From assembly GCA_018105865.1 (NCBI GenBank), contig JACLAT010000047.1:523001-587000 (forward strand): 64,000 nt of DNA, written 5' to 3'. The position numbers and the translations under genes are program-made. This document shows positions 4,201 to 61,798 of this stretch, piece by piece (the first letter of the stretch is position 1; every line of letters begins with the position of its first letter). The notes beneath the pieces were generated by a model. The model saw only the letters and a program-made list of their open reading frames with translations, made no database searches and was not told where the DNA came from. Origin of the DNA: Metaphire vulgaris (taxonomy: Eukaryota > Annelida > Clitellata > Crassiclitellata > Megascolecidae).

Positions 4201-6014
4201 CAGTGTTCCCTCTAAGCTGCGCTGTGCGCTGTTAGCGCACAAGAAATCCCAGAATTTTGGTATTTTGCGCACAGAGATTTGCGGTTGCGCACGGGTAATT
4301 ATCAAACTTTGCGCACGCAAGTTGTGATTTGCAATAATGTTAATAATAATGTCACGTGCAACAGTCAGTGCCGTTTGTAAGTTTGTCTGTAGGCGATAAA
4401 ATTTTGCGCTATAACAATTGCTCGGCGACCTTCTTTAAATTTCTTTATCATATTAAAACCTCTATGCGATAATGCGATTTTGACAAAATTCTTTCTATTT
4501 TATGTTTCCGTCGCGTCGCGTAATCAACCTGAAAGCAAACGTTAGCCATTTTCGTATGATCAATAATTAAATCCGCTATTAAAGTAATTTTGCGTTGAAC
4601 ATTTAAAAGAATGTCCAAGCGTAAAGCCGAAGACTCCTTAAGCAACACGGCAAAGAAAGGTCTTTTTAAATTAGAATGGCTCACATCTTGCGCAATTGAA
4701 ACCGAAATGCCGCAAGAGTCCGACAACAACCGAAAGTCCGTCTTATTGGGTGACATATTTAGCTTCTCGGAAGCCGCAGGTGTGAAATGTAAGATCTGCG
4801 CGGAAGCTAAGTTGAGCGATGAATGGACCAAAGGATAAAAGTGGAGCGACTATAAAATCGACTATTTGAAACGAAATGTCACTCATGCTACACACCGTGA
4901 AGCAGTAAGAAAACTGAAGAACTTTCACAAAGGTCCATTGCAAAAAATGTTAACCGATTCGGAGAAAGATAAAGAACTGAGACAGGAACTGAAACTGCGG
5001 CAAAAATCAAACCCAGACGCGATAAAGGCGTTACTGAAGAATATCGTGTGTACTATTGAAATGAATAGTTCAATGCTTTCAGTTCAAATTATCCACAAAC
5101 GCGTTGCAGAAGTAGAGGTGTTACCAGATGCGTGGCGCAGTAAGAATTATGCATATGAATTCCTGAAATATATCAGTTCCACCATAAAAAATAGAAATTT
5201 TTGAGGAAATTAGGCAATCACGTTTTCACACATTGATTGTTGATGAATCTACTGATATTTCCATAAACAAAATGCTGATTTTGTATATAAAATATCGAGA
5301 GCCAACAGGTGCATTTTATAAAACGGCATTTGCAGGAATAGTGCAGTTAACAGGATGTGACAGTTTATCCATTTTAAATGCTATCAAGAGTTTTTACAAT
5401 CAAAATGAATTAAATATGAATAAAATGGTGATGTTCACATCAGATGGTGCATCAGTAATGCTTGGAAAAAAGAAGGGGGTCGCAGTGCTGTTGCAGAGAT
5501 GTATTCCTCACTTATTGGAACAACACTGTGTGGCACACAGGGAAGATCTTGGTTTAGATGATGCCTGGAAAAAGATACCCCTGATGGTAGAAATTGAGAA
5601 TTTAATGAAAACGGTGTATGCAATATTTTGCAGATCATCTGTTAGTTGAAAATTTCAGACAGTGTCTGGTATTCTGCCACAATTGTTCTTGGCCTTAATA
5701 TTTGTAGTTTCTTGATGTCTTTCTTTCTGCGATTATGCATGTTGGTGGAAAACACCGGTAACCTTAACACATTTTTAATTGAATATGTTATCAAAATATC
5801 AAGTTATCAATTTATCACCTATTAAAGGAATAATGATATATTCGTATTTCATACTTGTAACGTTGTAATTTGTCTTTAACATGGTTTGAAAACAAACTTG
5901 AAATCTTGTTCACTGTTCACTGTGCTCAGTGCTCACAGGACTTGGGCCGAAGTTATTTATGCTCACGAGACTCTATTTTTGCTCACGCAAGGTCATTTCT
6001 TAGAGGGAACATTG
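4201..6014 (+). mobile_element. hAT transposon, internally decayed
   Basis: The ends are CAGTGTTCCCTCTAAG at the left and its slightly altered inverse (ending in GAACATTG) at the right. They are flanked by perfect 8-bp duplications ATCTCGAC (4193-4200 and 6015-6022). The element carries a hAT transposase remnant (4611-5649) but lacks the C-terminal dimerisation region. Subterminal repeats of a GCGCAC or GCTCAC type are visible near both ends. Ends and duplication make the hAT call secure. Confidence 0.93.
4611..5649 (+). pseudogene. hAT transposase, broken and C-terminally truncated
   Basis: The N-terminus starts MSKRKAEDSL and reaches a BED-like zinc finger start (CKICAEAKLSDEW). A TAA at 4836-4838 and a frameshift near 5200 interrupt the frame. 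After it comes the RNase H-like core: VDESTDIS (first catalytic Asp), then MFTSDGASVMLGKKKGV and the CVAH block of hAT transposases. Reading stops at a TGA after CRSSVS, and I see no C-terminal hAT dimerisation domain before the element's right end. This resembles the ZBED5-like hAT family. Not functional. Confidence 0.9.
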
Positions 6015-36278: not shown

Positions 36279-39200
36279 TTAGTAACTATGTTCGAAATCG
36301 ACAATTTGACCAGTGCACACGTCATAGTCATGGTCTGTATCTCGCCTGTCTTGAGATATTACTTCAATAGTTCCTTCAAGAGACTCCAAAAGAAAGGTTT
36401 TTTCCATTTTGCTAGGCTTACTCAGGTTCAAATCAGGCTTCCTCTTCTTCAGTTTACTTCTAGTGGACATGAATTGGCGTTGCTGAGTCGCAAATTTATT
36501 TGCCGGTTCACGTTGCGATGCCTGGGAGACAGAAGGCAATTGTGGCCTTGCTTTCAAAGCTGAACATAAGGCTCGGACCCTGCGAAGCTCTTGGCAGATG
36601 GTCGGTACAATTTCAGGATTCAGGAGCAGTTCGGATCTGATGCTGTGCATGTGTTCGTCTACTAATGACAAAGATGTTTCATGTTGCTGCTTATTGGTAA
36701 TCCCAAGAATGGCTGCTGTCTCACTTTGAATAGGCATAGGATCTTCGGAACTGGCTATAGACTCTTCGGTATTGTAGTGCGGAGCAACTTCATAACCGCT
36801 TAAATCACATTGGGTTGTGACTTGCGAGTCCTCCACCGCCTCCACGTCTGTGCAGCCGTCTGTTATACTTGCTATATGAGAAATCTCCGGTGTTGCAGCC
36901 CGCATTACAAGATGAACATGCTTGCATATGGTGTTTCGCAACCCCGAATCGAGGCAGCTGCACGAAAAGTAATGAACGCAGATATTACAATCACTGCAGT
37001 GTATGGGACACAGACGTTCACTATGTGGCAAGAGGTCCTTTGCTTCTACACGGTACCCAGAGCTGTAGGCGTTTGCACCTACACTATACACCCTGTTTGG
37101 AATGACAGTGAACCAAACCATTGTCCAAACATGTGCTGCGTCTATGTCTTGTCCGAATGCCACTCACGTGCCTTGTCCACTTGCCTTTGTGTAGTTTCAA
37201 AATTCGGTCGTACATTTTCCGACGCATGAGCTTAGTTAGGGCAAACAAGCTCTTGTCCATCCTCTTGACTCTACGTCCCTGCATGTGCACATGCTTGATG
37301 ACACGGTGAAGTGCCTCAAGATGCATGTTGTGGTTTACGTGCAGACCAAGTCGCCTGCTGAATGACCATAATTCAACTCTGTCCGCATACTCATTTTCAA
37401 AGTACACTGCAAAGTCTATGGTTTTCGCATCGCTTTTGGCTGTTGCGAGGAAGAGTTTCAATTTATTATCAAACTCATGCCTGTCTGGTATTTCCATAAG
37501 TGCACGTATTGTTTTGTATATAGTTGTTTTTAGTTGTTTGTCGCCTCGGATCTTTGGTAAATTTTTCCTCCAAGCGCGATCTACGTGCCAAGTGCACAAC
37601 AGTCTGTGTGCTGGTTGTCCCATGACTTTGCACCATGCTTTGTAATAGACTTCCGTGTCATCTGTCATTAAAATTACGTCGGCCATAGTCTGCAAAAGAC
37701 GTTCAGTGATTGACATATAAAGTTATAAAGTAATCAGCAGAATGAATCAAAAACCTTGATTGCCATGATGGACTACAGAACGTAACTATATGTTATAACT
37801 CCACTAGTAAAAACTGCTGAGGTGCGGTGTTAGGGTCATAGTTTCTCAGACGACAGTTGTCGTCAGTAATTATTTTTGTAGTTTTCCAATAGACACCTCC
37901 AGGAGGGTGAGGGATAGTTGGGCAATGAAAAGTGTGTGGCATTTCTAGCTTCTCTAAGCCTTTCCAAACCATTCTTATTGTAAGTGTAACAACGAGGTCT
38001 AGAGTTATATTAAAACATTGTTAATTAGTTTGCTAGAGATACTATACCTGACCCAACGCTTCGCGACATTTCTCAAGGAACACAGTCATTGCTGTTTCAT
38101 CAACTCGGTTAGAGTAACAGAATGCCTCCGGAAACCCTTCACCGTGTTCGTCAATAACCAGTAAGGTTGTTAATTGGAAGTCGTAGGCGTTGGTGCCATG
38201 TGTCGAATCAAGAGCAACCTCTTTCCCGCGCCCGCCAAATTGCCGTAATCCAGCGACCTGAGCTGCACTCATGATCACAAGCATGAAATCATTCGCGTGT
38301 AAACGTCTGTCTCCTGTTTCGCCTTGGAATTTAGAATAACGGACAATGCTTGCGTTTCCGCTAGCTCGATCACGCACAATCCATGCTGCCACGCTGTCAG
38401 CATCATTGTTGTGTTGGATATCACCTGTGCATGCATACATCTAGGCATAAATATGTTTTCAAAACAAGAGGCGTTTCTATGACTGAATAAAAATATGTTT
38501 TTGCCATAACAGCTAAGCTACCAATCAAACAATGCAAAACTGATTGAAAATTGCGAAAAGACAAATTATGAAACAATTATCATTGTACCGATCACAGACA
38601 GGGTTATCTTGGTATGACACCTTTAGTTTTGTCTCATATATATTTACAACAAGAATTAATACAATACTTTAAAACACCATCGTACAACATATTTCTACCT
38701 TTGTTGATGTTGAAATCACGCATAATGTTTTTCAGGTCACTCTTGGTTAGAAAGTGAAGGCTGGTCAACTTGGTGTCCTTTGATTGAACCTGATCAATGA
38801 CATCATCCATAGGAAGTCCAGCAGCCAACATGTCAGCGATCTGCAAGCGGTGTCTACGTGGTAACGGCAAATGGGCAAAGTCACATTGATGCCCTTTATG
38901 GTCAGACCTGTACGTTACCGTCACTTGTCCTACAATATCATCAGTATAAATGACTGGCACAAAGTGACCATAGATGAAGAGTAATCCGTTGTAGACATGT
39001 CAATTAAGGAGGAAACTTAAAGGTCTGCTAAGCAAGTTTACTTAATTTGAAGACAGGGACGATCAAGGATTGCTTGGATCGACAACATCGTGAAGTGGAC
39101 TGGACTTTCTGGCTTACACCTAATCCGCGCCACACATGATATGTAACGCTGGAAAACACTTATCCATTCTTCGAGCAAACCGTAGTCAAGCGATGATTGC

Positions 39201-41348: not shown

Positions 41349-42593
41349 GGTGCTAGGTCAATTCGGACCCGGCGATATCGGACCGGACAATAGGGGCCGG
41401 CGAATTCGGATTAAGCAAATTGGGACCGGCGAATTCGGACCGAAAGACCGGTTAATAGGGGCCGGCGAATTGGGCCTGACTTAGCTTGCGCCTATATGGA
41501 TTTAACTTCATATCAATAACACAGATAATGACAGATTTGCTTTTATTGTTGTCCTCAGCTACTTTCTCGTGCTTTTATATGTTAAAATAGTTATTCTGCG
41601 TTTTGAAAAGTGCTTTTATCTCTTAAAAAGTTTGTATAGGCCTACTGTACGTCTTAAAAGTACTTTTATATTTTAAGGGGGGAAGGTTCTAACCACAACA
41701 GAAAAAGAAAGAGACTTGGGGATAATCATCCATAGAAGTATGAATCCATCTCACCAATGCATGGAGGCAGCAAAAAAGGGAAACCAAATGTTGGGAATGG
41801 TGAAAAGGACAATTGTGAGTCGTGACAAAGAGATAATCATTAAACTTTATAAGTCATTAGTAAGGCCTCACCTAGAATACTGTGTTCAAGCTTGGAATCC
41901 ATTCTTGAAAAAAGATATAGAACTTTTAGAAAAAGTGCAAAGACGAGCAACGAAGATGGTCAATGGGTGCCATAATTTAAGCTACGAAAAAAGACTTCAA
42001 TATTGTGGACTGACAACATTAGAAAGGAGAAGAGAGAGGGGGGATTTGATAGAAACATACAAAATAATGACTGGGAAAGTAGATGTGCCATATGATCGAT
42101 TCTTTACATTGGCACACTATAGCAGCACAAGAGGCCACAAGTGCAAATTATTTAAGCAGAGGGTTGGTCCAAGAAAGAAAACTTTTTTTAGTGTAAGGGT
42201 TGTGGACAAATGGAACAGTTTGGACGAGGTGGGAGTAACAGTTGAAACAGTAAACGGATTCAAAGGCTATCTAGATAAACTAGGTTATTGAATGCGGATG
42301 GTTGCATCAGTGGTTTTCACACAGGCTTACTTAGCCTCCTAAACCACTTAAAATCACATTATTATTATTATAAAAAGTTATACGCTTTCATAAGTGATTT
42401 GATAATTTTAATTTTTTATAACTTTTACAATAGGTCATTTATTTATTTACAAAAAATTCCGGTTTCTGATTTGACCTACCACCGGTCATTATTACATTCG
42501 TCTCACAGCACCGATGCGCCGAATTCGCCGGTCCGAATTCGCCGGCCCCTTTTGTCCGGTCCGATATCGCCGGGACCGAATTCGCCGGACACC
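41349..42593. mobile_element. Inverted-repeat element with GGCGAATTCGG tracts, nested LINE
   Basis: The left end (GGTGCTAGGTCAATTCGG, then CCCGGCGATATCGGACCGGA) and the right end, inverted (GGTGTCCGGCGAATTCGG, then the same CCCGGCGATATCGGACCGGA), extend over about 90 to 110 bases. They are made of tandem GACCGGCGAATTCGG-like units. The duplication GACTAACGC (9 bases) flanks it at 41340-41348 and 42594-42602. It contains a LINE copy (about 41640-42372), so the original element was about 0.5 kb. No transposase. Superfamily unknown; 9-bp duplications would fit a Mutator-like mobiliser. Confidence 0.88.
41640..42372 (+). pseudogene. CR1-like LINE 3' end, best-preserved copy
   Basis: A 191-codon frame at 41716-42291 covers the C-terminal part of the reverse-transcriptase protein: SMNPSHQCMEAAKKGNQMLG, SLVRPHLEYCVQAWNPFLKK, VQRRATKMVNGCHNLSYEKR, STRGHKCKLFKQRVG, FFSVRVVDKWNSLDEVGV and a natural end LDKLGY-stop. 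The 3' untranslated part ends CACTTAAAATCACATTATTA. Only the 3' fifth of a full LINE is present, as expected from incomplete reverse transcription. It is the youngest-looking member of the family that includes 780-1830 and 16376-16675. Confidence 0.93.
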
Positions 42594-44116: not shown

Positions 44117-44257
44117 TCTATATTTGAAAATCTAGAGATTATTGGACAGAACTTATTTTGCAACAGAGCAGTTGAAAACGATGTCACTGAAGCAGTCAAA
44201 ACCTATCTGACTCCAGAAGAATCCAATTTCGAAGTTATATATTGTCGGGCAGAGAAC
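44117..44257 (+). other. In-frame open segment just upstream of the ankyrin-cGLR start
   Basis: These 47 codons are in the same frame as the ORF starting at 44297. They read coding-like, with LFCNRAVENDVTEAVKTYLT and a charged, helix-prone composition. A TAG at 44258-44260 separates them from the main frame. They could be a lost N-terminal extension, an exon joined by splicing around the TAG, or chance. Confidence 0.4.
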
Positions 44258-44296
44258 TAGGTTCTTACTGATCATCAAGAACATAATTCTGAGCAA

Positions 44297-47200
44297 ATGG
44301 AAATGCAATTTCATGATGATGATAATCCGCGACTCCCGCGACTCTCGCGACTCCCACGGTTGAGATTCAATGCTGGAATTGAAGAAACAATCGCCCCAAA
44401 AGATTCTATAATTGGTTCGGTTTTGTTGGAGGCTGTTAAAATGGCAGAAAGTCACAACCTGTTTATTCACGGATTTAATGAGGATGGGCAAGAAGAATAC
44501 TTGGCAGCCGATATTTTATCCGGAAATTTCAAAACACCTAAAATTTTCTTAAAATCCGAGGAATTCAATGCATGCGTATTGAATTTGCAGAATGAGACCA
44601 TTTTTGAAATCATTTGCAAAATAAGAACCGGATACGGCTGCGAAATAGACGTTCTTCTTCCGATACTTTTCCAAAATGGGATTGACTTAAATGGCAGAAA
44701 CAAAAACGGAGAAACATTCTTGATGCATGCAAGCAAAAATAAACGCTATGACATTGTTCGCAGTTTATTAGATTTGACTTCACATGGATTTGATCTTGAC
44801 ATCGACACAGTCGATAATTCTGGTGAAACGGCTTTAATGAAAGCAAAACGAAATAAAGATTCAAGAATTGTTGCTGCTTTATTTGGAAAGAAATTCATCT
44901 CAGCAGTTGAAGATGAAAACGAAGACGCAATGATGAAATATTATCATTTTCTTCTCGGATTTAATGAACACGAGTTGACTTATTTTTATGAAATGGTGGC
45001 AACATATTTGGGAAATGAAATTAAGTCAAAAAAGGTGAAAACGATTGACATTTTATTGAAATCTTGGAAATTGAATGCAAATGTTTTAGATTTGAAGAAG
45101 AGGACCATTTTTGAATTCATTTGTGAATTAATGACTGGATACCTTTGCGATAGAGGTGATCTTATTTCGATACTTCTCCAAAATCAGATTGATTTAAATG
45201 GCAGAAACAAAAACGGAGAAACTTTATTGATGTTTGCATGCAAAAATAAACGCTATGACATGGTTCAATGTTTATTAGATTTGGTTTCACATGGATGTGT
45301 TCTTGACATAAGGGCTGTTGATAATTCTGGTGAAACGGCTTTAATGAAAGCGAAAGAAAATATGAATTCAGAAACAGTTGCTGCTTTGTTGATATTGAAA
45401 CTGAAAGATGCACTGGAAGATAAAAATGAAGGCATTGTCAGATCGGTGCTAAACGAATTCAATAATAGGCCTACCACAGATATCTTTGCGAAATCGTGGA
45501 ACTCGAATCAAGACCTCAAATGGGAAGCAAAATCAACAAGCAAAAGGCCGACAAAATCTGATGTTTGGTTAGCTGCCATGTACATAGCAATGGAAAATGA
45601 TACAAAACATTCTGAAGAAATTCTGAAACTTCTTTTGGATTGTGAAATTATTTTTGAGCAACAAATTTCATTTGATAAAATTATGCAAAGTCAAAAGCTT
45701 TCATTTGATCCAATTGAAGAACTCACTCACCAAAGTAAAGTCGATGATAAAACAATGCGTCTAATTGAACTGCTTTTAAAATCTGGAAAAATCAATGTGA
45801 GCAACTACGGTAGAACAGCGTTTCATCTGACTAAAGATGAAAAGTTAATTTCATTACTCATTCGTTATGGCGCAGATATCAATGAAAAAGACAGAGAGGG
45901 GAAAACACCGTTAATGTCAGATATAGTAGCGTGTGGCAATGAAAGATTTCCGGTTTTTCGGACACTATTGGAAGAGGCGGGAACGTTGGATAATCTGAAC
46001 GCTGTGGATTCTGATGGTCGAACGGCCTTAATGCATCGGGTAATGAAGAATCGTTCGCAGCATGTTGAATTGCTCCTAAATAAAGGCGCATCAGTCAATT
46101 TATCTGATCATCTTGGGTTCACTGTCCTCCATCATGTTTTATATGAGGATAGTTCGCAATGTGTACAATTTCCGCGAAATTTTGAAGAATTACAGAAAAT
46201 AACAGAAATGGCCCTTTTATACGATGATGCAGGATGCAAAGATTCTTTACGGAGGAGAGAATGGGAAGAGAGAATGAAAATAGCTGAAATGTTGTTGCAG
46301 AGACCAGATATAGATGTGAATTTATTAAGCATTCAAATGTTTTCGCCATTGGATATAGCTGAAGGACAGATTCCAGAAATTCCGTCATCAATTAAAAGCG
46401 CTTTGATAAAGAAAGGAGCGGTTTTAAACGTTTTAAAACAGACAGAATCACCGTCAACAAGTGATTGTCATCTGGATTTTAGATTGAAGCTGATTTTAAA
46501 AGCAATCGATAGATTTGCAGATATGTTTAATACCGAATATTTAAGCGTCTTTAAAGAGAAATGGTTGGCTTTAGTCGATACATTTAAGGAGCTAAAAATC
46601 TCAAGCAAAGACCAACAGGGAAGAACAGCTTTGCATTTGTTTGCCATTTATTCTTATAATCTGCGAAGCGATAACGATTTCGTAAGCGATTTGGTGAATA
46701 CAATTGTGGATAAGTTGATACCACTCGGATGCAGTGTCAATAAAACTGACATTTACGGGCGCACCCCTTTACATTACGCTAACACAATGCTATGGAAATT
46801 GCTCATATCTAAAGGAGCTGATGCATCAATTGAAGATAAAGACGGAAATATTGCGTCACGGCCTATTTCAACTGAAAAATCACGGGAGTCTTCAACTGAA
46901 CCCTCTGATATAGCTAGTGAAGTCAATAATCGAAATGATGAAACCTACATACTTCGTCTTATGAATAATAAGCAAATGGAAATAATTTTTCAGCGTGTTG
47001 ATTATCAAGATAAAGTATCCGACAGTAGCGACGTTGATAGCGAAATTTATAACGATAGGCCTATAGATACAGAATCTGGTGATAGCAATGAATTTTGGCG
47101 GAGGGAAGTCAATCTTAAAACCGCTCCTAGCAGCGACGGTGATAGCGATACAGATACAGAATCTGACGAAAAGGAAACAAATATTGATTCTCGAGTTAAC

Positions 47201-48493
47201 GACAACGAAGAAGCTCCTGAAATTTGGCCGCAAAAAGTGAATACTGAAACTGATCCCATGTTTCTATGGGAAGAAGGCAAGTATGCATTTCGTCATCCTT
47301 TAGTTAAGCAAATCACTAAAGAAGTGAAAGAATTGATGGACGCCATTGCCAAAGAGATTGAAAGACTGGATCCGAGATTTGAAATTAGACCTGAGTTTGT
47401 CGGAAGCTCTAATGAAGGAACAAAACTTGACAAACCAGATGAATTCGATTTTTGTTTTGTTCTTACAAAGATCAGTGAACTTTGCGAAGTTTCTCAATCT
47501 CCAGAACTTCCCACTGGATTTGTTCGTCTAAAACGAAGGTCAATAAAAGTGGGCGAAACAAGTGATTTTGACAGTTTCTTTGGAGAAGACGGAATATTGA
47601 ATACTGTAAAACTTAATTGGCAATTTGCAACCATATTAAGTAACACAATGGATAATGTTGAAAGGCAACAGCGTTTCGAGTGGATTTTGAACTTTCCGAT
47701 CAGATTTAAGCCTATTTCTGATAAAATAGAGAAAGTTGTTAACATTTCTATGATTAAGCCTCTAAATTTCTTTACTGCGAATAGCATTTCAATTGATATT
47801 GTTCCTTGTATTCATGTTGATAACTGGTGGCCGGATGAAGCCATATCCAATGTGAACGATGAAATTAAGAAGTTCGGTTGCAATTTGGTCTTTGATGGTC
47901 CTCAAGAACTATATCCCTGGGTTCCATTTTCAGAATCTTGCGCCAGGATTTCATTTGCCAAAGCTGAGAGCGATATGATTAAGAAAAGTTGTGACAATGC
48001 AAAGGAAGCTTATATGATTGCGAAGACGATTGAGAAGTATGATTTGGATTATTATGGTTCCAAATACATTACGAAGAATTGTGTATTGTATTGCATTGAA
48101 GCATTATCACCATCTTCTGAGAAAGCATCTAAACTGGGATTAAGTCTTGAAGAAATGAAATGCAAATTCCATCAAATGGATCGTTATTTGTGGTTGAAGT
48201 GTCTTTTGAAATGCCGTCTTGAGTTTGTTGCACAGGATTTCTGTCCGTGTTACCTTCTGCCGAATTTCAGTTCTCCAATTGATAAACGTTATTTTAAAGG
48301 CATTTCCTTTGATTGGATTGCTAATGACAACTGCTCCTTTCCCGTGGCATGTATAAATACTTGGAAGCTTTATCGTTGCACATCAAATGATATTTCCGAG
48401 TCTGCATACCAGTTACCAGCTCCCGATCCACTCTGGGAGCGTTTTGATCGAAAACAATTGATCGCAAGACTGCGTGAGATCGCATACAAGTAA
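44297..48493 (+). CDS. Ankyrin-repeat cGAS-like receptor (Mab-21/cGLR nucleotidyltransferase)
   Basis: One uninterrupted frame of 1398 codons, no introns. Residues about 10-20 are a short Arg-Leu-Pro repeat. Degenerate ankyrin repeats follow at about 133-200, 300-366, 500-615 and 772-860, with phrases such as NKNGETFLMHASKNKRYDIV, DSDGRTALMHRVMKN and DIYGRTPLHYANTM. Residues about 880-1005 are a Ser/Asp/Glu-rich linker. The C-terminal third is a Mab-21/cGAS-like nucleotidyltransferase: G1036-S1037 followed by DEFDF with E1049 and D1051, and D1167 in SISIDIVPCIHVDNWWP. Then come SCARISFAKAESDMIKKSC and YLWLKCLLKC. All three metal-binding acids are present, so it may be catalytically active. 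Known family members make cyclic dinucleotides on sensing nucleic acids and signal through STING. Ligand and product here are unknown. I see no cGAS-type zinc thumb. The start is the first ATG after an in-frame TAG at 44258; an alternative ATG is two codons later. Confidence 0.9.
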   Translation: MEMQFHDDDNPRLPRLSRLPRLRFNAGIEETIAPKDSIIGSVLLEAVKMAESHNLFIHGFNEDGQEEYLAADILSGNFKTPKIFLKSEEFNACVLNLQNETIFEIICKIRTGYGCEIDVLLPILFQNGIDLNGRNKNGETFLMHASKNKRYDIVRSLLDLTSHGFDLDIDTVDNSGETALMKAKRNKDSRIVAALFGKKFISAVEDENEDAMMKYYHFLLGFNEHELTYFYEMVATYLGNEIKSKKVKTIDILLKSWKLNANVLDLKKRTIFEFICELMTGYLCDRGDLISILLQNQIDLNGRNKNGETLLMFACKNKRYDMVQCLLDLVSHGCVLDIRAVDNSGETALMKAKENMNSETVAALLILKLKDALEDKNEGIVRSVLNEFNNRPTTDIFAKSWNSNQDLKWEAKSTSKRPTKSDVWLAAMYIAMENDTKHSEEILKLLLDCEIIFEQQISFDKIMQSQKLSFDPIEELTHQSKVDDKTMRLIELLLKSGKINVSNYGRTAFHLTKDEKLISLLIRYGADINEKDREGKTPLMSDIVACGNERFPVFRTLLEEAGTLDNLNAVDSDGRTALMHRVMKNRSQHVELLLNKGASVNLSDHLGFTVLHHVLYEDSSQCVQFPRNFEELQKITEMALLYDDAGCKDSLRRREWEERMKIAEMLLQRPDIDVNLLSIQMFSPLDIAEGQIPEIPSSIKSALIKKGAVLNVLKQTESPSTSDCHLDFRLKLILKAIDRFADMFNTEYLSVFKEKWLALVDTFKELKISSKDQQGRTALHLFAIYSYNLRSDNDFVSDLVNTIVDKLIPLGCSVNKTDIYGRTPLHYANTMLWKLLISKGADASIEDKDGNIASRPISTEKSRESSTEPSDIASEVNNRNDETYILRLMNNKQMEIIFQRVDYQDKVSDSSDVDSEIYNDRPIDTESGDSNEFWRREVNLKTAPSSDGDSDTDTESDEKETNIDSRVNDNEEAPEIWPQKVNTETDPMFLWEEGKYAFRHPLVKQITKEVKELMDAIAKEIERLDPRFEIRPEFVGSSNEGTKLDKPDEFDFCFVLTKISELCEVSQSPELPTGFVRLKRRSIKVGETSDFDSFFGEDGILNTVKLNWQFATILSNTMDNVERQQRFEWILNFPIRFKPISDKIEKVVNISMIKPLNFFTANSISIDIVPCIHVDNWWPDEAISNVNDEIKKFGCNLVFDGPQELYPWVPFSESCARISFAKAESDMIKKSCDNAKEAYMIAKTIEKYDLDYYGSKYITKNCVLYCIEALSPSSEKASKLGLSLEEMKCKFHQMDRYLWLKCLLKCRLEFVAQDFCPCYLLPNFSSPIDKRYFKGISFDWIANDNCSFPVACINTWKLYRCTSNDISESAYQLPAPDPLWERFDRKQLIARLREIAYK

Positions 48494-49320
48494 TTAAAAA
48501 ACACTCACATGCCGAGATATTTGATTGCAAGTACGGCGAATATTTATGCTTATTTCACATTGAGAACTTCAGTTCAAAAGACATGAGTTTAGCAAGAGTG
48601 AACATGTATGTGAAGAGAATGCAGGTTATGGTAAATCCAGGCTTTTTAAGGCGAAGAGGGATAAGTTTTAATTTAAGATGTGTTTTACTGTTAATTGACC
48701 GTGTTATTCATCGTAATAGTTAGCGACATCTAGGGACGCCGTCGCGCCGAGAGGGGCAATTGCAGAGGGACCCGGCGGCCTGCAGGGGACCCGGGCCCGC
48801 TGATATTGTTTAACAATAACACTGGTCAACAAGGTTTTTGTTTCTTGTGCAATTTCTGGTGTTCCAGGTAGATTTTGTCATGCTGATTACAGGAATAATT
48901 TTGAAATTATCCTATCACGTAAGTTTTTTGAGAAAAAGCTGATTTAATATTTTAAAATTATAAGAATTTTAAAATCGTGGTCTTCGAGAGTTATCTGAGT
49001 TACGATACAAGTTACAATACAATTACAGTTACAATACGCATTGTCCTTCTTGTCCAGATACGTATTCTAGTGACTTATTGAGTTATGGGTATTCAGGTTA
49101 GGCAAGTATCTTATGTGGCCGCCATAACAGATGTAATATGCACAGCTGGCTCACTTAACTACATGGATTTTGAATATTAGTATAATTAGGCATGTCCAGA
49201 CATGCCCAGACGCGCCCAAACCTGTCTTCAAGACTACATGCCTAGCATGTATTGTTGCTATGGTTACGCAGTCCTATATAAATACCAAGCAGCACTAGGA
49301 AGCAGCTGCAGTCTTTCTAT
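48494..49320. other. Downstream of the ankyrin-cGLR gene; nothing further recognised
   Basis: A GC-rich patch at 48725-48800 contains GGGACCCGGCGGCCTGC. No clear AATAAA close to the stop. A TATATAAATA at 49274 lies about 120 bases before the next broken gene's likely first ATG and could be its TATA box. Confidence 0.4.
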
Positions 49321-60169: not shown

Positions 60170-61341
60170 TCACTCGTAGCTGTTGCAGATAGGTTTTGAA
60201 TGTTCTTTGCAAACGTTTCGCTTGCAAGAAGAGCAGGTGATGTTGCTCTTCTTGTCTTTCTCTCGTCCGCAGCAGTGACATCTTGCCCGCTTCTTAGGAG
60301 GTTCACCAACGGTCAAATTCTGGTCAGCTTCTTTCTCGTTTGCAGTAGGTGCAATACAAGTTCCGCCTTGAATGAGCTGCTTTACCAACTCCAACAGGAA
60401 AATGCTACGCCGATGTTTGGCTTTGTTCTTCCATTCTGGATTGAGTGACACCCATATAGGCTAATGAAAGCATTTAGGGCGCTGATGTCAAGCATTTTAT
60501 AGAATATAGTCATTGACCATCTTCTTGTCATTCATTTGGTGGAATACATGCTCAGCGTATGATCAGCAGTGTCAACGCCACCTTTTGTAGAATTATCATC
60601 AAGAATGATTTGTGGTTTTCGTTTCGGAAGTGTCTGAACCACTTATGGTTGATTATCGTGCCCAGCAGTGTCATTTTCCTATCTAGTAATTTCTGTGCAA
60701 GACTAAGGCTGCAAAAGAAATGATCTGTTGTTGAATTTCTGCCAGAACCTGTCATTTCTTCAGCTAATTGCATAACAACTCGTTCACCCTGATTCTGTTC
60801 TAGAACCAGTCCTTGCTCTGCCAGTGTGAACCTGAAGGCGAAGAATATGCGATTTTGCACTGTCACACAACATCCACAGCTTGATGCCATATTTGCCTGG
60901 TTTGCTTCGAATAAACTGTTTGAAGGGGCAATACCCACGGTAGGTGAGAAGCTGTTCATCAACTGTTGCATTCTCGCCTGGAACAAATGAATCATTCAGT
61001 GTCTTTCCCCACATATCAAACACTTTTCTAATTGGTGCAAACTTGTCAGCAATACGGTGCTCTCGTCTATTAGCTGCATCATCAAATCTAATGGAATGCG
61101 AAAGTTGTTCAGAAAGAGCACGGGCCATGCTTCTGCCGAAAATAGCACGTCCATCTTCCAGGTTCCATAGCTGGATGATAGATTCACTTCTTGACTTGTA
61201 CACGCCAGACAGAATAAGAAGACCAAGAAGGCACATAAACTCGTCTTCTGTCGTGTCCTTCCAATTCGCACCACAAATGCCTTTGCCTTCTGTGAGCAGC
61301 AGAATATTGATGCTGTGACATTGTTGTCTAAAATCAAACAT
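60170..61341 (-). pseudogene. piggyBac transposase, frameshifted
   Basis: The minus strand gives MCLLGLLILSGVYKSRSE, ATVDEQLLTYRGYCPFKQFI and SKPGKYGIKLWMLCDSAK. These include the first two catalytic Asp (TVDEQ, CDSA). A frameshift near 60790 leads to GSGRNSTTDHFFCSLSLAQK and LLDRKMTLLGTI. A second shift near 60600 exposes STKGGVDTAD, the third Asp, and a third shift leads to MSLNPEWKNKAKHRRSIFLL. The C-terminal cysteine-rich zinc domain (CHCCGREKDKKSNITCSSCK) is intact. The N-terminal region before the DDE domain is not evident. All catalytic blocks survive, so inactivation looks recent. Confidence 0.92.
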
Positions 61342-61798
61342 GCCGAATCACAGGGTTACTTGCATGCAAGTTTATTACATAATTGTAAATAAAATACACT
61401 AAAATAAATATAAAATAATTAGTCAAGAATAATTACCTTTGTATACGTAGCAAATGATTGTCAGTGATCACGATTTTTGAAAGCAGCAATGAGTCACAGC
61501 CTCGATTTGTAATGGGGTCAAAAATGACCCCACCGGTACTCAGTGCTAGACTGTGTTACTGGCGCCCTCTGGTGGTTTATAAAAAATATCTGATAGGTGC
61601 ATCATGTTGATCAGTTTGAAACATGAAATGTCTTAAAGTAATACTATTCTGATGCATCTGGTTCCTAAGCTACACAAGACGAAAGTCTCGCTGGGGTCAC
61701 TTTTGACCCCAGCGGTACTTCTAGGGTTAACCGTGTATTTAACTGTAACTCAATGTAAAATGGACGGATATATCTGGGATCCCCAGTTAAGGGGTTAA

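What the first reader, a model, noticed from the sequence alone, without database searches (positions are those of the whole stretch)
44297..48493. Single-exon ankyrin-repeat cGAS-like receptor with intact catalytic triad
Seen: a 1398-codon uninterrupted frame with ankyrin-type repeats at the N-terminus and a Mab-21/cGAS-like nucleotidyltransferase at the C-terminus (GS at 1036-1037, E1049, D1051, D1167). Known: metazoan cGLRs make cyclic di- or oligonucleotide signals after sensing pathogen ligands, and lineage-specific expansions occur in invertebrates. Inference: the ankyrin array may act as a ligand- or effector-binding sensor domain in place of a cGAS-type zinc thumb, which I do not see. 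The lack of introns suggests a retrocopy or transferred origin. This is the best candidate for a new defence component here.
Basis: partly seen in the sequence, partly recalled or inferred. Interest (0 to 1): 0.88.

Follow-up and report, generated by a model that had tools for sequence, protein, structure and literature searches.

The report
Earthworm ankyrin cGAS-like receptor gene family
The gene is a real, intron-free fusion of ankyrin repeats to a cGAS-like enzyme domain, one of dozens of such copies in what is probably an earthworm genome, hinting at a large set of intracellular sensors feeding a short downstream pathway.

Summary

"Retrocopy or transferred" is not supported. The window lies in a 728 Mb animal genome, probably the earthworm Metaphire vulgaris (inferred), with at least 125 places of this kind: 70 on contigs C1-C41, 55 on small contigs that include haplotigs. 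Of 20 loci read at 10 kb, 15 are one continuous frame.

The domain is acidic (median pI 5.5 in 40 loci), unlike nucleic-acid-sensing cGLRs. STING exons were found at two loci, one beside a TIR exon. Best explanation: a diversified intracellular receptor family whose ankyrin arrays gate second-messenger synthesis; none of this was tested biochemically.

Ankyrin-cGLRs and >200-gene expansions are already published; the acidic, single-exon, clustered, probably annelid version is the new part. This copy is 5'-truncated relative to its closest relatives.

The parts
44297..48493 (+). Single-exon ANK-Mab-21 open frame, 1398 aa plus stop
44297..46876 (+). Ankyrin-repeat region, residues 1-860 (residues 1-100 modelled with low confidence)
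   Evidence: Pfam Ank_2/Ank_4/Ank/Ank_5/Ank_3; AlphaFold2 model of residues 1-985 mostly helix pairs, mean pLDDT 61.6, many ankyrin blocks 70-90
44497..44796 (+). Internal duplication, copy 1
   Evidence: 300 nt, 76% identical to 45004-45303
45004..45303 (+). Internal duplication, copy 2
46877..47251 (+). Acidic linker, residues 861-985, pI 4.12, predicted disordered
   Evidence: pI; pLDDT below 50 at 858-985
47252..48490 (+). cGAS-like nucleotidyltransferase domain, residues 986-1398
47402..47407 (+). GS of the activation loop, residues 1036-1037
   Evidence: invariant in 22 of 22 paralogues
47441..47443 (+). First catalytic acid, E1049
   Evidence: invariant in 22 of 22; aligned with the E of cGAS and cGLR1 chains
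47447..47449 (+). Second catalytic acid, D1051
   Evidence: invariant in 22 of 22; E in one further locus, L042
47795..47797 (+). Third catalytic acid, D1167
   Evidence: invariant in 22 of 22; aligned with the D of 'ISVDI' in cGAS chains 7lz3 and 7kxs, in a stretch that scores near zero on its own
44126..44257 (+). In-frame remnant of ankyrin coding sequence upstream of the ATG, closed by TAG at 44258-44260
   Evidence: tblastn 57-61% identity to paralogues L012, L026 and L027; 1 of 50 shuffled queries gave a hit at E<0.01; homology to the long L012 frame starts at 44126
48498..48676 (+). Conserved 3' flank
   Evidence: 80% nucleotide identity to the L017 flank; 79% to L026 over a shifted stretch; no long poly(A) run seen in the sequence

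Best explanation
The frame is one member, 5'-truncated but open, of a duplicated and clustered family of single-exon proteins in which a long ankyrin array (and here an acidic, predicted-disordered linker) precedes a cGAS-like nucleotidyltransferase. SHOWN by sequence and model: architecture, fold, conserved catalytic residues, family size and clustering, STING exons in the same genome. INFERRED: the ankyrin array binds a protein ligand (a pathogen effector, or a host protein that it disturbs) inside the cell; binding lifts inhibition of the C-terminal enzyme; the enzyme makes a cyclic di- or oligonucleotide; and the many receptors converge on the few STING proteins, at least one of which appears joined to TIR. 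The genome is inferred to be the earthworm Metaphire vulgaris.
For: Fold and closest solved structures. G1036, S1037, E1049, D1051 and D1167 are all among the 67 invariant columns of 22 paralogues, and 15 of 15 further paralogues keep GS, an acid pair and the third D, one with E for the second acid. Family size: 103 matches at 99 places with 99 of 253 candidates scored; 150 of 442 PF03281 candidates scored; union of this kind 125 places. Long frames kept open while paralogues diverge: median dN/dS 0.53 in the enzyme part and 0.63 in the ankyrin part over 78 pairs of 13 genes on C42. Acidic domain, median pI 5.5 in 40 loci, whereas dsDNA/dsRNA-sensing cGLRs are reported with pI above 8.5 (PMC9980059, passage). 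STING_LBD matches at two loci with a TIR_2 exon beside one.
Against: No expression, ligand, product or phenotype data. Acid 2 to acid 3 spacing is 115 residues here by subtraction (113-156 in the 37 of 40 loci where the regular expression matched), outside the X50-90 used in PMC9980059, and V rather than Q/T precedes GS. Variation in the ankyrin repeats is raised at DARPin-like binding positions (0.265 vs 0.181) but is as high at some other exposed positions. The ankyrin part evolves only slightly faster than the enzyme part and below dN/dS 1. This copy has lost N-terminal sequence and has an in-frame stop just upstream; 5 of 20 loci read at 10 kb are split over several frames. PMC12928593 (abstract read) reports shrimp Mab21 proteins that made no cGAMP in response to ISD or poly(I:C) and act by binding a kinase.
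Confidence: 0.5

Rival explanations
1. Catalysis-independent adaptor: the proteins work as scaffolds that bring kinases or other partners together, and the enzyme fold is kept for structure.
For: Shrimp Mab21 proteins bind IKK-epsilon and made no cGAMP in response to ISD or poly(I:C) (PMC12928593, abstract). Ankyrin arrays are general protein binders (established knowledge).
Against: The GS and three acids are invariant in 22 of 22 paralogues and kept in 15 of 15 more, one with E for D, while domain identity between paralogues falls to 41%.
Confidence: 0.2
2. Direct nucleic-acid sensor like cGAS or Drosophila cGLR1: the nucleotidyltransferase itself binds DNA or RNA and the ankyrin array only localises it.
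For: Same fold as cGAS and cGLRs.
Against: Domain pI 4.8-8.6, median 5.5, in 40 loci; no zinc-thumb pattern. Nucleic-acid-sensing cGLRs are reported with pI above 8.5 (PMC9980059, passage). No surface charge was computed on the model, and the pI programs differ.
Confidence: 0.12
3. The window copy itself is a decaying paralogue of a functional family (this does not exclude the best explanation for the family).
For: Upstream ankyrin remnant closed by a TAG; the related long frames of L012 and L027 run on upstream where the window does not. Of the 103 rows, 9 list internal stops, so decayed members exist.
Against: 1398 codons open with every catalytic residue kept and PF03281 above cut-off.
Confidence: 0.35
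4. Retrocopy or horizontally transferred gene.
For: No introns within 4.2 kb.
Against: One continuous frame in 15 of 20 family loci read at about 10 kb; clustering, all 16 C42 rows on the minus strand; alignable 3' flank; no confirmed relatives in viral contigs (single sequence) or genome contigs (profile A3). Two of four Mab21L1/2-type loci of this genome are also single frames of 374 and 363 codons (L001, L002).
Confidence: 0.04
5. Developmental, non-immune Mab-21 role.
For: Mab21L1-related proteins have a developmental role (PMC9980059, section 5).
Against: Profile A3 matches solved cGLR1 chains (5.8e-12, 2.6e-8) better than mab-21-like 1 (5.2e-4); separate Mab21L1/2-like loci exist (by eye); the family is large and fast-evolving.
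Confidence: 0.05

Closest known systems
Ankyrin-fused cGLRs (Li et al. 2023, PMC9980059; Stylophora pistillata and others)
   Same: cGAS-like domain joined to ankyrin repeats; the paper says some cGLRs carry ankyrin modules and that 3 S. [quoted passage not shown]
   Different: Here tens of copies; frames up to 2199 codons counted from a methionine (L013); acidic domain; longer spacing between acid 2 and acid 3. The paper's supplementary tables were not read, so how far its ankyrin-cGLRs share these features is unknown.
cGAS (vertebrate) and Cv-cGLR1 (oyster)
   Different: No zinc-thumb pattern, acidic pI, ankyrin array; 17% and 16% identity in the structural alignments
Extreme cGLR expansions of bivalves (Dreissena polymorpha, Crassostrea virginica; more than 200 proteins, PMC9980059 section 5)
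   Same: Very large copy number in one genome
   Different: Annelid host (inferred); a large part is ankyrin-fused here
MAB21L1/2
   Same: PF03281 domain; some members single-frame
   Different: Separate loci L001-L004 in this genome (by eye); weaker profile match

Membership tests
Mab-21/cGLR superfamily (PF03281) | PF03281 match above curated cut-off | tested here: met
   49.6 bits, cut-off 24.1
Mab-21/cGLR superfamily (PF03281) | cGAS-like fold over nucleotidyltransferase core and C-terminal helical part | tested here: met
Mab-21/cGLR superfamily (PF03281) | Mab-21_C domain PF20266 | tested here: inconclusive
   No PF20266 match in P0001 or in L012, L014, L017; the structure match nevertheless spans this part
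Mab-21/cGLR superfamily (PF03281) | Falls inside the cGLR clade of a broad CD-NTase tree | not tested
   only a tree of this family and its near relatives was built
cGLR as curated by Li et al. 2023 | GS plus [DE]h[DE] plus a third acid | tested here: met
   GS1036, E1049, D1051, D1167
cGLR as curated by Li et al. 2023 | Strict motif h[QT]GS ... X50-90 before the third acid | tested here: not met
   V before GS; 115 residues between acids 2 and 3, 113-156 in 37 of 40 loci. Solved cGLR1 chains also lack Q/T there as printed (K in 8gjy, S in 8gjw). The claim here is therefore: superfamily member that probably works like a cGLR, not a curated cGLR.
cGLR as curated by Li et al. 2023 | Makes a nucleotide second messenger | not testable with these tools
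   needs an enzyme assay
Vertebrate cGAS | Zinc thumb | tested here: not met
   pattern H..CC..C (recalled) absent from the domain in 40 of 40 loci
cGLR-STING pathway | STING in the same genome | tested here: met
   PF15009 at C8 and C14, 3 matches over cut-off, 9 of 9 candidates scored

The most novel reading that the evidence does not exclude
An invertebrate has evolved an NLR-like repertoire out of cGAS-like enzymes: tens to over a hundred ankyrin-armed nucleotidyltransferases with diversified protein-sensing arrays, all converging through cyclic nucleotides on one or two (TIR-)STING effectors. It would be protein or effector sensing by the cGLR branch rather than nucleic-acid sensing.
Probability: 0.3. 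Interest if true: 0.85.

Novelty: new variant of a known kind. Interest (0 to 1): 0.58.

Why it matters
cGAS-like enzymes are known mainly as nucleic-acid sensors; some acidic ones have no known ligand (PMC9980059, passage). A large family in which the likely sensing part is a visible, separable ankyrin array gives a concrete system for asking what acidic cGLRs detect and how many receptors share few STING proteins. It would also extend cGLR immunity to annelids, if the host inference is right.

Tried and rejected
Retrocopy or transfer: rejected for the reasons given under rivals. Zinc thumb: pattern absent. Viral or prokaryotic origin: the viral-contig scan with the single domain sequence gave 3 pattern stretches and no confirmed relative; the genome-contig scan with profile A3 gave 20 stretches and none; both scans find only what shares short patterns. 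Rfam and tRNA scans of the window were empty. The DARPin-position test of ankyrin variation was not specific. The profiles were too long because of badly cut slices (P0005); the residue survey, the counts and the tree use profile A3. The 15-of-20 continuity count rests. Three of 40 loci (L010, L016, L028) missed the strict third-acid regular expression, but the D is invariant in all three in the alignment. Rows left out before counts: L006 and L025 (same places as L009 and L005) throughout; L001-L004 and L007 (other Mab-21 kinds) and L044-L045 in the residue surveys; L049, L050, L054, L055 and L056, of which L049, L050 and L055 repeat other places while L054 and L056 are distinct places left out without need. 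Five Mab21L rows were set apart from the 150. A COX1 search to name the host and a TIR search did not complete.
Full report
OBSERVATION. The frame 44297-48493 (+) is present as described: 1398 aa from ATG to stop, against 294 codons for the next longest stop-free run in the window and a chance of about 3e-40 for so long a run at this base composition. Pfam finds five ankyrin models and Mab-21 PF03281 at 49.6 bits (cut-off 24.1), residues 1039-1229. GS1036-1037, E1049, D1051 and D1167 are at the stated places. The frame holds two 300-nt direct copies, 76% identical, 507 nt apart.

THE GENOME. The window is G000:C47:523001-587000; G000 has 728,303,522 bases in 246 contigs. Metaphire vulgaris was published as 728,570,957 bp in 280 scaffolds, with 41 chromosomes of 11.0-50.2 Mb (PMC7666815, passages); C40 here is 11.3 Mb and C42 is 0.8 Mb. 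The species name is an inference from these numbers; the idea came from recall, and the contig counts differ. A related earthworm, Amynthas aspergillum, is 758.86 Mb with 43 chromosomes (PMC12130307, abstract), which fits less well.

THE FAMILY. PF03281 gave 150 matches with 150 of 442 candidates scored. I divided the rows by profile coverage: 5 Mab21L-type rows, 89 of the full-length kind to which the window gene belongs, and 56 of a second kind with frames of median 680 aa. A search with the window's own domain gave 103 matches at 99 distinct places, 99 of 253 candidates scored; 9 of the 103 rows list internal stops. The union of the two lists for the first kind is 125 places: 70 on C1-C41 and 55 on higher-numbered contigs. 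Membership of the union was judged by match, and ankyrin repeats were confirmed by Pfam in P0001, L012 and L014 and weakly in L017, not in all 125. Two pairs tested between small contigs and C18 were 99.3% and 98.7% identical over 600 nt, so some of the 55 are haplotigs, as the M. vulgaris paper also reports for unplaced scaffolds. The best non-self match of the window domain is 73% identical, so no near-identical partner of it was among those scored. C42 carries 16 rows, all on the minus strand, with frames from 529 to 2422 codons. Of the 20 loci read at about 10 kb, 15 show the match in one frame, while L011, L023, L025, L026 and L028 are split over two or three frames; whether by introns, decay or assembly error was not settled.

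CONSTRAINT. Among 22 paralogues (window plus 21 loci, identities 41-80%) the domain has 67 invariant columns, which include G1036, S1037, E1049, D1051 and D1167. All 15 further loci of this kind that were read, L029-L043, keep GS, an acid pair and the third D, with E for the second acid in L042. Pairwise dN/dS over 78 pairs of 13 C42 genes has medians of 0.63 (ankyrin part) and 0.53 (enzyme part): constrained but fast. Ankyrin positions that bind ligands in DARPins (recalled) vary more (0.265) than the rest (0.181), but some other exposed positions vary as much (9 repeats, 9 genes), so this does not by itself show a ligand-driven pattern.

THIS COPY. The long frames of L012 and L027 match the window from 44126 or 44141 onwards and run on further upstream where the window does not. 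The stretch 44126-44257 is a remnant in the same frame, closed by TAG 44258-44260. One of 50 shuffled queries also gave a hit at E<0.01. So this member is 5'-truncated; whether it is expressed is unknown. The 3' flank is alignable to L017 and L026 for about 170-180 bp, which fits DNA-level duplication.

ORIGIN OF THE FUSION. In a FastTree of 54 domains rooted on P0007, genome loci fall in more than one clade together with proteins from other sources: L033 and L038 with P0005, P0006 and P0010-P0013 (support 0.91), and the window clade with P0002 (1.0). This suggests the fusion is older than the local expansion; the root is arbitrary and the organisms behind those proteins are unnamed. P0008, from a Logan contig, is 97.5% identical to L029.

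CHARGE AND PATHWAY. The domain pI is 4.8-8.6, median 5.5, over 40 loci; whole-protein pI of the window member is 5.17. Li et al. report pI above 8.5 for dsDNA- and dsRNA-sensing cGLRs, and acidic auto-active ones thought to respond to a ligand other than nucleic acid (passages). The pI programs differ. STING_LBD matches occur at C8 and C14, 9 of 9 candidates scored, 3 matches over cut-off. On C8 a TIR_2 match (35.8 bits, cut-off 28) lies 5' of the STING exons; on C14 a piece aligns with the end of that TIR exon, 31% over 45 residues. That TIR and STING form one transcript is inferred. Eukaryotic TIR-STINGs are described as rare, with oyster as the example (PMC10732462, passages).

KNOWN WORK. 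Ankyrin-cGLR fusions and more than 200 cGLRs in some bivalves are published (PMC9980059, section 5 and passages). Literature searches listed no paper that, from its title and abstract start, treats annelid ankyrin-cGLRs; the library is open-access only, and the supplementary tables of Li et al. were not seen. The M. vulgaris paper's main text has no 'mab-21', 'cgas' or 'ankyrin', nor has the Amynthas paper.

VERDICT. A real gene of a known superfamily, in a variant that stands out by its long single-exon frames, clusters, acidic enzyme domain and few STING partners. The sensing mechanism is a hypothesis. The confidences of the rivals do not sum to one because decay of this copy does not exclude the family explanation.

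Noticed in passing
G000 C8:18362515 (L046) and C14:944608 (L047, L048): Two STING ligand-binding loci; at C8 a TIR_2 exon lies 5' of the STING exons, suggesting a TIR-STING, and the C14 locus has a piece resembling the end of that TIR exon.
   Followed up: partly
L007, L044, L045; contigs C21, C32, C1: A second Mab-21 kind: 56 of 150 rows, frames of median 680 aa, PF03281 plus Mab-21_C in the three read, with GS, DhD and a third D visible by eye in the translations.
   Followed up: partly
L001-L004 (C40, C16, C33, C38): Four Mab21L1/2-type loci (judged by eye from the translations), which would fit the whole-genome duplication reported for M. vulgaris.
   Followed up: no
window 60784-61347 (-), 38042-38440 (-), 5188-5649 (+): Transposon-like fragments: DDE_Tnp_1_7 (111.9 bits), a sub-cut-off MULE match, a sub-cut-off DUF4371 match.
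   Followed up: partly
window 41677-42291 (+): Looks by eye like the end of a LINE reverse-transcriptase frame; no Pfam match.
   Followed up: no
L017, G000 C42:186467-196330: A 2422-codon stop-free frame whose first methionine leaves 706 codons, with Mab-21 at 2062-2250 and only weak ankyrin matches: most of the frame is unexplained.
   Followed up: no
C58 vs C18:6.956 Mb; C53 vs C18:7.822 Mb: Unplaced contigs hold near-identical second copies (99.3% and 98.7% over 600 nt), so counts that include them are inflated.
   Followed up: yes
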